Assembly (NCBI RefSeq): GCF_030295425.1
Contig: NZ_AP027081.1
Span: 1,240,001-1,304,000 of the forward strand
Reading direction: 5' to 3'
Length of the DNA stretch: 64,000 nucleotides
From: Mesoterricola sediminis
Lineage (GTDB): Bacteria; Acidobacteriota; Holophagae; Holophagales; Holophagaceae
A program made the translations under genes and the position numbers. This document shows, in pieces, positions 41,394 through 45,007 of the stretch. The notes under the pieces were generated by a model. It ran no database searches and was not told the origin of the DNA. It saw only the letters and a program-made list of their open reading frames with translations. Positions within the stretch are counted from its first letter, which is position 1. Each line of letters opens with the position of its first letter.

Positions 41394-41900
41394 ATGGGCC
41401 GGCTGATCGGGTTCGCGCTGCTGGCGCCCGCGGCCGTGGCCGGAGACGTCCAGGTGCTGACCCAGGCGTTCCTGGAGGAGATGGCCGAGGTGCTCGGCCG
41501 CAATTCGGAGGCCCCCACCGCGGAGAAGCTCGCCGCCATCGCCCGCCTGGACGCGGCACGGACGGTCAGCCCCCTGGGGGCCGCCCTGCTCCTGGACCGG
41601 GGCAACCCCCGGTTCGAACCGGATCCGGTCATCCGCGAAGCCGCCGTCAGGGCCCTCCGCCACGTGGCCGAACCCCGCAACCGCATGTCGGCCCTGCGCC
41701 TCGTGCGCATCGCCGATCCCGCCCATGAACCGGAACCCGCCGTCCGGGCCGCGGCCCTGGGCATCCTGGCGAGCCTCCAGGTCGCGGAGGCCGCCGCCCG
41801 GGTGCTGGATTCCACCCGGGAGGACCGGGAGCCGGATCCGGCCGTCCGCAAGACCGCCTCCGACCTCGTCGCCCGGGGACTGGCCGCGGGCGCCTACTGA
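41394..41900 (+). CDS. exported HEAT-repeat protein
   Basis: The 168-residue product has a hydrophobic N-terminus (LIGFALLAPAAVAG) and about three HEAT-like helical repeats with a recurring EPDP-VR motif (FEPDPVIREAAVRALRHVAE, EPEPAVRAAALGILASL, REPDPAVRKTASDLVA). The function is unknown; the domain suggests protein binding. It overlaps the convergent bacteriohemerythrin gene by 7 bp at the 3' end. Confidence 0.7.
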   Translation: MGRLIGFALLAPAAVAGDVQVLTQAFLEEMAEVLGRNSEAPTAEKLAAIARLDAARTVSPLGAALLLDRGNPRFEPDPVIREAAVRALRHVAEPRNRMSALRLVRIADPAHEPEPAVRAAALGILASLQVAEAAARVLDSTREDREPDPAVRKTASDLVARGLAAGAY

Positions 41901-42313
41901 GGCGCTCCAGGCTGGGGATGCGTCCGGAGGTGGTCGAACAGGGCGAGGTCCCAGCCGAGGATGTGGCTCTGGAGCCAGTCCCCCAGGAACCGGGCCAGGC
42001 CCTCCGCCGGCACCAGCGCCGGATCCTGGTCCCGCAGGTCCCGGATGAACTTGACCCGGGCGATGAGCCGGTCGTGCTCTTGCTTGTGGCGGGCGAGGCC
42101 AGGGAAGCCCGCGCCGAGCATCAGGAACTCCTCCGTGCTGAAGTGCTCCTGCACGTAGCGGGCCAGGAAGTCGAGGGTCTCGTCCAGGCGCTCCCGGGAC
42201 ATGCCCGCCTCCAGGTTCTCGTCGAAGGCGTTCACCGCCTCGAAGAGGGCCTGGTGCTGCCGGTCGACGAGCGCGTTCCCGGTGGCGAACTTCGGGCTCC
42301 ACTGGATGAGCAT
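41894..42313 (-). CDS. bacteriohemerythrin
   Basis: The 139-residue protein carries all diiron ligands: His20, His57, Glu61, His76, His80, His117 and Asp122 (VDRQHQALFEAV, QEHFSTEEFL, HKQEHDRLI, LQSHILGWDLALF). It binds O2 reversibly and may store, deliver or sense oxygen. It lies 22 bp downstream of the LpdD-like gene on the same strand. Confidence 0.93.
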   Translation of the reverse strand: MLIQWSPKFATGNALVDRQHQALFEAVNAFDENLEAGMSRERLDETLDFLARYVQEHFSTEEFLMLGAGFPGLARHKQEHDRLIARVKFIRDLRDQDPALVPAEGLARFLGDWLQSHILGWDLALFDHLRTHPQPGAPQ

Positions 42314-42335
42314 GCCGTTTCCTCCTGGGGCGGGA

Positions 42336-42758
42336 TCAGCCTCCATGGTGGCCCGGGGCCCCCTCCGTGTCCATGGCGCCGGGCCGCTCCAGCGCCTCCG
42401 CCAGCTCCCGGGCCAGGTCCGCGGTCAGCCCGGCCACGTCCGCCCGTTCCGCGGCCGTGATGGCGTCCAGGTGGATCCCGCAGGCCACGGTGACGGTCGT
42501 GCCGAGGCGCGCGGCCAGCTCCAGCGCGATGGCCCGGGCCAGTTCGTCCTCCTTGTGCCCCAGGAGGGCCAGCACCGAGGCCGTGGCGCTCCGGCGCCCG
42601 CCGTCCTCCAGGCTCGGCCGCGGCTGGGCCAGGGCCACGGCGCCGGTGTGGGGCAGGCCGCCGCCGGCGATCGCCACCACGAGGTCTCGGCCCATGGGCA
42701 CGCAGGTGAGCTGGATGGTCAGGCGGCCCTTGGATGCCTCCAGGCGCAGGGTCTCCAT
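42336..42758 (-). CDS. LpdD-like (prenylated-flavin chaperone-like) domain protein
   Basis: The 140-residue protein shows DLVVAIAGGGLPHTGAVALA, RRSATASVLALLGHKEDELA and VTVACGIHLDAITAAE, segments typical of the LpdD family, first seen as the small subunit of gallate decarboxylase and thought to help load prenylated FMN. No UbiD-type decarboxylase or UbiX gene is nearby, so its partner must be elsewhere or it has another role. GGAGGAGGA precedes the ATG. Confidence 0.7.
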   Translation of the reverse strand: METLRLEASKGRLTIQLTCVPMGRDLVVAIAGGGLPHTGAVALAQPRPSLEDGGRRSATASVLALLGHKEDELARAIALELAARLGTTVTVACGIHLDAITAAERADVAGLTADLARELAEALERPGAMDTEGAPGHHGG

Positions 42759-42851
42759 GGGCTCCTCCTCCGGTCCAGCATCCCTGGAAAAACCCGCCCC
42801 GGCAACCGCCTCATGTGCAAGGATGGAAGGGATCCCTAGACAGGTGGCGAC

Positions 42852-43511
42852 GTGGGCGAACTGTTCGGCAAGGAAGTCTTCACGATCGGTATCATCGGCG
42901 GCGGCCGCGGCGGGCTCGGGCTCCTGAAGTTCTTCGGCACCAGTTCCGTGGCCCGGGTGGTCTTCATGGTCGACCCCAATCCCTCCGCGCTCGGCATCGC
43001 CGAGGCGCGCAGCCGCGGGATCCGCACCTACGCCGACGACGAGGAGGCCATGCGCGGCGAGCTTCCCGACTTCCTCTTCGACGCCAGCGGGGACGCCGAT
43101 CTGGAGACCCGCATCCGCCAGCGCCTGCGCGGCACCTCCACGATGCTGATCACCCCCCTCACCAGCCGGATGATGGTGGAGGTCCTCACCGAGAACAACG
43201 CGCGCATGCGCGAGGAGATCTCGGAAGTGGTCTCGACCATCAAGAGCGAGCTCTCCACGAGCCTCGACGCGAGCAACAGCATCGTCGCGCGCATCAACTC
43301 CATCATGAGCAACATGCAGATGCTCGCCCTGAACGCCAGCATCGAGGCCTCCAAGGCCGGCGTCCACGGCCGCGGGTTCACCGTGGTGGCCGACCACCTG
43401 GGCAAGTCGGTGGAGGCCGTGCGGAACCTGACCCAGGAGATCAACCGGGTCAACGAGAACATCATCCACGTCTCCCACCGGAGCGACACGGTGCTGGAGA
43501 AGTTGAAGTAA
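42852..43511 (+). CDS. cytosolic Rossmann-domain / chemoreceptor-tip hybrid
   Basis: The 219-residue protein lacks transmembrane segments. Residues 8-105 form a nucleotide-binding Rossmann fold (FTIGIIGGGRGGLGLLKFFG, VVFMVDPNPSALGIAEARS, LPDFLFDASGD). Residues 108-219 form a short methyl-accepting-type coiled coil with the signalling hairpin MLALNASIEASKAG at 158-170, then HGRGFTVVADHLGKSVEAV. The tip keeps the residues that contact CheA/CheW. The coiled coil is far shorter than in normal receptors. It starts with GTG behind AGGTGG. It may be a soluble redox or NAD(H) or CoA-ligand sensor. No che genes are in the window. Confidence 0.75.
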   Translation: MGELFGKEVFTIGIIGGGRGGLGLLKFFGTSSVARVVFMVDPNPSALGIAEARSRGIRTYADDEEAMRGELPDFLFDASGDADLETRIRQRLRGTSTMLITPLTSRMMVEVLTENNARMREEISEVVSTIKSELSTSLDASNSIVARINSIMSNMQMLALNASIEASKAGVHGRGFTVVADHLGKSVEAVRNLTQEINRVNENIIHVSHRSDTVLEKLK

Positions 43512-43675: not shown

Positions 43676-45007
43676 GTGGGCCGGCCCCGCATCCTCGTGG
43701 TGGACGACGAGCCCCTGGCGGCGGGCCTCCTGGGGGAGTTCCTGGCCCGCCGGGGGGTGGCCGTGGACGCAGCCGCCACCTGCGCCGAGGCGGAGGCCCG
43801 CTTCGGCCGGGAGGTCTACGACGCCGTCCTCCTCGACTACGGCCTTCCGGACGGCAACGGCCTGGATCTGCTCGGGCGGCTCCGGGCGGCGGACCCCGGG
43901 GTGCCCATCGTCCTCGTCACCGGCCAGGGGAGCATTGCCCTCGCCGTCGACGCCATCAAGCTCGGGGCCGAACAGTTCCTCGTGAAACCCGTGGATCTGG
44001 GCCTGCTGGCCCAGGTGCTGGACCGGGTGATGGAGACCCAGCGGGCCCGCCGACGCCAGGCGGCCCTGGCGGCCGAACCGGACCGGCCGCCCCGGCTCTT
44101 CCTGGGCACGAGCCCGGCGATCCGGCGCCTGGAAGCGGAGGCCCGCCTCGCCGCGGCCGCCGAGGCCCCGGTCCTCCTGCTGGGGCCCACCGGCACCGGG
44201 AAGAGCGAACTGGCGCGGTGGCTCCACCGGCAGAGCCCCCGCGCCGCCGAGCCCTTCCTGGAGCTCAACTGCGCGGGCCTCACCCGGGAGTTCCTGGACA
44301 CCGAGCTCTTCGGGCACGAGAAGGGGGCCTTCACCGGGGCCGTGGCCGCCAAGATGGGCCTCCTGGAGGCCGCGAACCGGGGCACCGTGCTCCTGGACGA
44401 ACTGGGCGACATGGACCTCCTGATCCAGCCGAAGCTGCTCAAGGCCCTGGAGGAGAAGCGGTTCCGGCGCCTGGGGGACCTGCGGGACCGCCGCGTGGAC
44501 TTCCGCCTCGTCTCGGCCACCCACCGGGACCTGGAGGCGCTGGTGGAGGCGGGCGCCTTCCGGGCCGACCTGTTCTACCGCGTCAGCGCCCTGCAGATCG
44601 CCGTGCCGTCCCTGGCGGAGCGGACCGAGGACATCCCCCTCCTGGCCGGCGAGCTCCTCGCGCGGTCGGCGGCGGCCTGGGGCCGGGAAACCCCGGCCCT
44701 GGAACCCGCCGCGGCCGGGCTCCTGGCGCGCCAGCCCTGGCCGGGGAACATCCGGGAGCTGCGCAACGTGCTGGAACGGGCCCTCCTCGCGACGCCCGGG
44801 CCCCTCATCCCCGCCTCGGCCCTGGCCCTCCGGCCCGGGCCCGCGCCGGCCGCCGAGGGGGGCCGCATGACGCTGCGCGAGCTGGAGCGCGCCCACATCG
44901 CCCTCGCCCTCCGCGAGGAGGGCCGGGTGGACGCCGCCGCGCGGCGCCTCGGCATTCCCCGCAGCACCCTCTACCAGCGGCTCAAGGCCCTGGGCCTCCG
45001 GCCCTGA
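43676..45007 (+). CDS. NtrC-family sigma-54-dependent response regulator
   Basis: The 443-residue regulator has a receiver domain with Asp54 (YDAVLLDYGLPDGNG) and Lys in FLVKPVD, an AAA+ domain (about 138-375; GPTGTGKSELARWLHR, the sigma-54 contact loop EKGAFTGAV, Walker B TVLLDELGDMDL) and a Fis-type HTH (AARRLGIPRSTLYQRLKALG). It activates sigma-54 promoters after phosphorylation. No kinase is adjacent; the H-D-F-K kinase at 7216 is a possible but distant candidate. It starts with GTG. The preceding gap 43512-43675 shows no gene. Confidence 0.93.
   Translation: MGRPRILVVDDEPLAAGLLGEFLARRGVAVDAAATCAEAEARFGREVYDAVLLDYGLPDGNGLDLLGRLRAADPGVPIVLVTGQGSIALAVDAIKLGAEQFLVKPVDLGLLAQVLDRVMETQRARRRQAALAAEPDRPPRLFLGTSPAIRRLEAEARLAAAAEAPVLLLGPTGTGKSELARWLHRQSPRAAEPFLELNCAGLTREFLDTELFGHEKGAFTGAVAAKMGLLEAANRGTVLLDELGDMDLLIQPKLLKALEEKRFRRLGDLRDRRVDFRLVSATHRDLEALVEAGAFRADLFYRVSALQIAVPSLAERTEDIPLLAGELLARSAAAWGRETPALEPAAAGLLARQPWPGNIRELRNVLERALLATPGPLIPASALALRPGPAPAAEGGRMTLRELERAHIALALREEGRVDAAARRLGIPRSTLYQRLKALGLRP

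What the first reader, a model, noticed from the sequence alone, without database searches (positions are those of the whole stretch)
42852..43511. Rossmann domain fused to a miniature chemoreceptor tip
The protein combines an intact dinucleotide-binding motif (GIIGGGRGGLG) with a CheA-binding hairpin and almost no coiled-coil stalk. It would be one of the smallest chemoreceptor-like signalling proteins, perhaps reporting NAD(H) or acyl-CoA status to a chemosensory array, or acting outside one. Oxygen-binding bacteriohemerythrin and an NtrC regulator lie beside it.
Basis: partly seen in the sequence, partly recalled or inferred. Interest (0 to 1): 0.6.

Follow-up and report, generated by a model that had tools for sequence, protein, structure and literature searches.

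The report
Rossmann sensor on chemoreceptor-like hairpin
This small bacterial protein joins a domain that looks built to read a cell's NAD-type cofactors to just the tip of a chemoreceptor; relatives share the same cut and an altered tip, suggesting an undescribed way of linking metabolic state to the swimming-control machinery, although its ligand and binding partner are untested.

Summary
The fusion is real. The ORF at 42852-43511 (+, GTG start, 219 aa) is an NAD-type Rossmann domain (residues about 10-101) joined by one long helix to an MCP-type hairpin (about 120-219). I found 19 near-identical-length proteins in 15 of 77 Holophagaceae genomes, and two distant ones in another Acidobacteriota family. 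GxGxxG and the acidic residue ending beta-2 (D41) are kept. The same Rossmann domain also heads sigma-54 activators; weaker matches head PAS-histidine-kinase and GAF proteins. It looks like an input module, not an enzyme.

The hairpin is not an ordinary CheA/CheW tip. All 19 end at the position of Tsr residue 439 (glycine hinge), with no adaptation region. The tip core is kept, but two of three receptor residues that make strong CheW contacts in E. coli (E402, R404) are lost in 19 of 19, while all 25 other MCPs in this genome keep them (R or K at 404). Some full-length MCPs elsewhere also lack them, so array membership is weakened, not refuted. The fusion was found only in genomes with FliG and CheW.

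Best reading: a soluble, dinucleotide-gated, chemoreceptor-like signalling protein with a rewired tip. Ligand and partner are untested. The hemerythrin and NtrC neighbours are not conserved outside the genus.

The parts
42852..43511 (+). Whole gene: Rossmann-hairpin fusion protein, 219 aa, GTG start
42879..43154 (+). NAD-type Rossmann domain, residues about 10-101
   Evidence: AF2 model; 4lrs/1nvm acetaldehyde dehydrogenase fold match
42897..42914 (+). GxGxxG dinucleotide motif, residues 16-21 (G-G-G-R-G-G)
   Evidence: G16 and G18 invariant, G21 at least 90% in 18 aligned domains
42972..42974 (+). D41, acidic residue at the end of beta-2 (NAD(H)-type ribose contact by analogy)
   Evidence: invariant in 18 aligned domains
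43155..43208 (+). Connector: first part of the long helix, residues 102-119, leading straight from the Rossmann fold into the hairpin
   Evidence: AF2 helix 102-169; nearly constant length in all members
43209..43358 (+). Hairpin N-arm, residues 120-169 (Tsr 340-389 equivalent)
   Evidence: Pfam MCPsignal; AF2
43359..43370 (+). Hairpin turn, residues 170-173 (GVHG)
   Evidence: AF2
43371..43508 (+). Hairpin C-arm, residues 174-219; the C-terminus falls on the Tsr G439 position
   Evidence: 64 residues from Q156 to the C-terminus in 19/19
43395..43403 (+). H182 and G184: positions of Tsr E402 and R404 (CheW salt bridges in E. coli), replaced in all members
   Evidence: PMC6954272
42336..42761 (-). 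Divergent neighbour: bacterial proteasome-assembling-chaperone-like protein (PF21758); context only
41894..42346 (-). Bacteriohemerythrin (NF033749); context only
43676..45007 (+). NtrC-type response regulator (receiver, sigma-54 AAA+, Fis HTH); context only

Best explanation
A soluble, stalkless chemoreceptor-like signalling protein. Shown by sequence and model: an NAD-type Rossmann domain runs by one continuous helix into the kinase-control hairpin of an MCP, cut at the glycine hinge, with no membrane, HAMP or methylation parts. Inferred: binding of a dinucleotide (most likely NAD(H)) changes the Rossmann domain, and the change travels along the connector helix into the hairpin. The hairpin pairs into a four-helix bundle and acts on the cell's chemosensory system, probably by associating with receptor trimers or with a particular CheW-type partner through a rewired contact face. 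Cofactor or redox state would thus bias swimming. It has no methylation helices, so it should not adapt by methylation.
For: Conserved family of 19 with constant architecture. GxGxxG, D41 and G80 conserved. No cysteine in this protein and no catalytic domain, so it is not an acylating dehydrogenase. The same Rossmann domain heads sigma-54 activators (E=3e-32 and 1.8e-31), with weaker matches heading a PAS-HisKA protein (2.9e-15) and GAF proteins (4e-11): an input module. The tip is the most constrained part (dN/dS about 0.1). Tip core (L378, L380, N381, E385, K388, F396, V398) kept 19/19. Fusion-bearing Holophagaceae all have FliG (15/15 against 41/62 of the rest, Fisher p=0.008) and CheW (15/15 against 46/62, p=0.03).
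Against: E402 and R404, which bridge to CheW in E. coli, are lost in 19/19, as are Q374 (17/19 non-Q) and L406. It was never seen beside che genes in the stretches read. The co-occurrence test ignores relatedness of the genomes. Ligand binding was not tested, and the AF2 Rossmann part is only moderately confident (a replicate from L010 was poor there).
Confidence: 0.5

Rival explanations
1. An ordinary, if very short, soluble chemoreceptor: it joins arrays, binds CheA and CheW in the usual way and reports NAD(H), like HemAT reports oxygen.
For: MCPsignal above cut-off; trimer-core residues and R/K394 kept (17/19); all carriers have CheW and flagellar FliG; full-length MCPs with Q/G at 402/404 exist (L103).
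Against: Unlike all 25 canonical MCPs of its own genome it lacks E402 and R/K404, and N376 is Q in 19/19. No adaptation region.
Confidence: 0.25
2. The hairpin has been re-used outside chemotaxis, as a dimerisation or docking rod for another partner (for example a kinase or regulator), so the protein is a metabolic-state reporter unrelated to swimming.
For: CheW-face residues replaced by other conserved residues (H/N/Q182, K185, S186); the same Rossmann domain drives sigma-54 and kinase outputs elsewhere; relatives in G256/G327 have lost GRGF altogether.
Against: Found only in FliG-positive, CheW-positive genomes; tip residues specific to receptor packing (N381, E385, K388, F396) are kept.
Confidence: 0.15
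3. An array modulator: it packs into receptor trimers by the conserved core but cannot hold CheW, so it dilutes or caps arrays in a cofactor-dependent way.
For: Kept trimer ionic-lock and stacking positions E385/K388 and F396 (PMC8144572) together with lost CheW bridges.
Against: The trimer contact Q374-R404' is also lost; no direct test.
Confidence: 0.1

Closest known systems
Soluble chemoreceptors (HemAT, YfmS of Bacillus subtilis; FrzCD of Myxococcus)
   Same: Cytoplasmic input domain directly joined to an MCP signalling hairpin, no membrane segment
   Different: Here the input is a Rossmann domain, the hairpin stops at the glycine hinge, and the CheW face is altered; HemAT is 432 aa (PMC7542364)
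Diacid_rec mini-MCP (L065, 282 aa, found here in a relative)
   Same: Short soluble protein, tip with the same 'TQML/MQML' wording in place of 'TNLL'
   Different: Diacid_rec input domain; keeps R at 404, has A at 402; longer C-arm
NAD-binding domain of acylating acetaldehyde dehydrogenase (DmpF/4lrs/1nvm)
   Same: Best sequence and fold match to the Rossmann part
   Different: No catalytic cysteine or catalytic domain
Rossmann-sigma-54 activators of Acidobacteriota (L060, L061)
   Same: Same Rossmann domain family at the N-terminus, E about 1e-31 to 1e-32
   Different: Output is a sigma-54 AAA+ and HTH
Rex redox sensor
   Same: Works-like analogy only: a Rossmann domain used to sense NADH/NAD+ (from memory, not tested)
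   Different: Rex is a DNA-binding repressor; no sequence match was tested

Membership tests
MCP signalling domain (PF00015) | Score above the curated cut-off | tested here: met
   55.5 bits vs 34.6
MCP signalling domain (PF00015) | Antiparallel helical hairpin with conserved tip core | tested here: met
   AF2 helices 102-169 and 174-218 (hairpin repeated); core residues 19/19
Canonical methyl-accepting chemotaxis protein | Methylation helices and glycine hinge beyond the hairpin | tested here: not met
   C-terminus at the Tsr 439 position in 19/19 (hinge G340/G341/G439 from PMC6606802)
Canonical methyl-accepting chemotaxis protein | CheW-bridging residues E402, R404, R394 | tested here: not met
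   R/K394 17/19, E402 0/19, R404 0/19; own MCPs E402 25/25, R/K404 25/25. Not universal in MCPs
Canonical methyl-accepting chemotaxis protein | Binds CheA/CheW in arrays | not testable with these tools
   needs pull-down or cryo-ET
NAD-type Rossmann domain | GxGxxG and acidic residue at the end of beta-2 | tested here: met
   G16, G18, D41 invariant, G21 at least 90% in 18 domains
NAD-type Rossmann domain | Binds NAD(H) | not testable with these tools
   no ligand assay
Acylating acetaldehyde dehydrogenase | Catalytic cysteine and catalytic domain | tested here: not met
   no Cys in the protein; match ends near residue 104-117

The most novel reading that the evidence does not exclude
A distinct class of mini-receptors in which a dinucleotide sensor works through an MCP hairpin whose CheW face has been rewired, so that cofactor state tunes chemosensory arrays without the usual CheW contacts and without methylation-based adaptation.
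Probability: 0.2. Interest if true: 0.75.

Novelty: new variant of a known kind. Interest (0 to 1): 0.5.

Why it matters
Known energy- and redox-sensing receptors mostly use PAS-FAD or heme inputs (from memory). A Rossmann input would read the NAD(H) pool directly. A natural receptor reduced to the kinase-control hairpin, constant in length across 19 proteins, would also test what part of a receptor is enough to signal, and whether the CheW bridges are needed.

Tried and rejected
Chance or artefact: rejected (family of 19, purifying selection). Truncated MCP or frameshift: rejected (same ends in all). Operon-based function: gene neighbours checked around the homologues; hemerythrin, PAC_bac, TrmO and the acyl-CoA ligase persist in most genus g1 genomes, and NtrC in the g1 genomes whose stretch reaches that far; G069/L010 keeps only PAC_bac. 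Several other genera place the fusion divergently from a protein that reads like Tex (by eye, not scanned), so no functional link was drawn. Acyl-CoA ligase paralogues nearby in g8/g10 (about 31-35% identity): too common to weigh. Viral contigs and plasmids: only generic MCPs or partial matches. No literature hit for a Rossmann-MCP or Rossmann-sigma-54 module in the held library (RtcR's CARF domain is a different Rossmann-type input); most subscription papers are not held. Foldseek/VIA lists were filled by Rossmann and long-helix chains, so absence of MCP chains there means nothing.

Full report
OBSERVATION. The ORF at 42852-43511 (+) is a real gene. It starts at the first start codon after an in-frame stop, has third-position GC of 0.96, and evolves under purifying selection against orthologues in the genus (dN/dS about 0.25 overall, about 0.1 in the tip). 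It encodes 219 aa. Pfam finds the MCP signalling domain at residues 115-216 above its cut-off and only a weak Rossmann hit. NCBIfam and PDB sequence searches link residues 6-104 to acylating acetaldehyde dehydrogenase. An AlphaFold2 model from three sequences (mean pLDDT 77) gives a Rossmann-type alpha/beta fold followed by helix 102-169, a turn and helix 174-218. Foldseek and VIA-align put acetaldehyde dehydrogenase NAD domains first (Z 12.5 to 4lrs), though VIA rows within 1 Z are tied and include another NAD dehydrogenase.

FAMILY. The window lies in a 4.52 Mb single-contig genome; named relatives are Holophagaceae. The full fusion occurs in 15 of 77 genomes of the family in 19 copies, with a tandem pair and a third copy in one genome, and in two genomes of another Acidobacteriota family in a more diverged form. 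No member varies in the length of the hairpin C-arm: from the tip glutamine (Q156) to the C-terminus is 64 residues in 19 of 19. By alignment this end is Tsr residue 439, one of the three glycine-hinge residues (G340, G341, G439; PMC6606802). The proteins are therefore cut exactly at the hinge: hairpin kept, methylation bundle, HAMP and membrane parts absent.

THE INPUT DOMAIN. G16, G18, D41, A46 and A52 are invariant, and G21 and G80 nearly so, over 18 aligned domains, including ones with other outputs. The acidic residue at the end of beta-2 is the usual mark of NAD(H) use (established knowledge). The protein has no cysteine and no catalytic domain, so it is not an acetaldehyde dehydrogenase. 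A profile of this domain alone over 396 Acidobacteriota genomes finds it at the N-terminus of two sigma-54 activators (E 3e-32 and 2e-31; both were already in the profile, having first been found with the whole-protein profile at E 6e-19 for G146). Weaker matches, not in the profile, lie at the head of a PAS-HisKA protein (3e-15) and of GAF-repeat proteins (4e-11 to 3e-10). A domain that swaps between such outputs is best read as a signal-input module. That the weaker matches are the same module, not just another Rossmann domain, is less certain.

THE HAIRPIN. In the E. coli core signalling unit model, three strong receptor-CheW contacts are R40-E402, D107-R404 and E18-R394 (PMC6954272). In the 25 other MCPs of this genome, position 402 is E in 25, 404 is R or K in 25, and 394 is R or K in 25. 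In the 19 fusion proteins, 402 is H, Q or N; 404 is G, T, A, N or S; 394 is R or K in 17. Position 376 is Q and 377 is M in all 19 (N and L in the 25 MCPs), while L378, L380, N381, E385, K388, F396 and V398 stay. The substitutions are themselves conserved, so this is a changed surface, not decay. A caution: full-length MCPs from unrelated bacteria met in the viral-contig scan have Q at 402 and G, K, R or N at 404, so the loss does not by itself exclude CheW binding. The attempt to find matching changes in CheW paralogues was inconclusive.

CONTEXT. In genus g1 the fusion mostly keeps its neighbours (acyl-CoA ligase, TrmO, HEAT protein, bacteriohemerythrin, PAC_bac on one side, NtrC-type regulator on the other where the stretch reaches), but not in other genera. 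The gene was not seen beside che genes in the stretches read. In Holophagaceae all 15 carriers have FliG and CheW, against 41/62 and 46/62 of non-carriers (Fisher p 0.008 and 0.03; relatedness ignored). Both carriers of the diverged form also have FliG and CheW.

MECHANISM. Most likely: dinucleotide binding in a Rossmann dimer shifts the continuous connector helix, changing packing of the hairpin bundle, which acts on chemosensory complexes through a non-standard face. Shown: parts, conservation, truncation point, changed residues, co-occurrence. Inferred: ligand, dimer state, partner, effect. Without methylation helices, methylation-based adaptation is not expected; the response would follow cofactor state directly.

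VERDICT. A genuine, conserved and apparently undescribed domain combination (within the literature held here), best called a new variant of the soluble chemoreceptor kind. It is not filed as a canonical MCP because tested defining features are missing.

Noticed in passing
L135:4385-5893 (+), own genome C1 about 101384-102892: A 502-aa protein of three CheW domains, beside CheA (711 aa) and a CheW protein with a long helical C-terminus; repeats of the triple-CheW protein recur across flagellated Holophagaceae.
   Followed up: partly
L065:2592-3437 (-): A 282-aa Diacid_rec plus MCP-hairpin protein in a relative, a second soluble mini-receptor with a similar tip.
   Followed up: partly
L060:1506-2849 (-) and L061:3292-4683 (+): Sigma-54 activators with the same Rossmann input domain, apparently an undescribed class of regulator.
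   Followed up: partly
window 42336-42761 (-): PAC_bac (proteasome-assembling-chaperone-like) gene divergent from the fusion and kept near it in genus g1, on the other side in L010.
   Followed up: no
L073:10956-12369 (+): Tandem pair of fusion genes, with a third, diverged copy elsewhere in the same genome.
   Followed up: no
L063:4134-4811 (+) and L062: Relatives of another Acidobacteriota family with the same architecture but a tip that has lost GRGF and has R/H at the 402/404 positions.
   Followed up: partly
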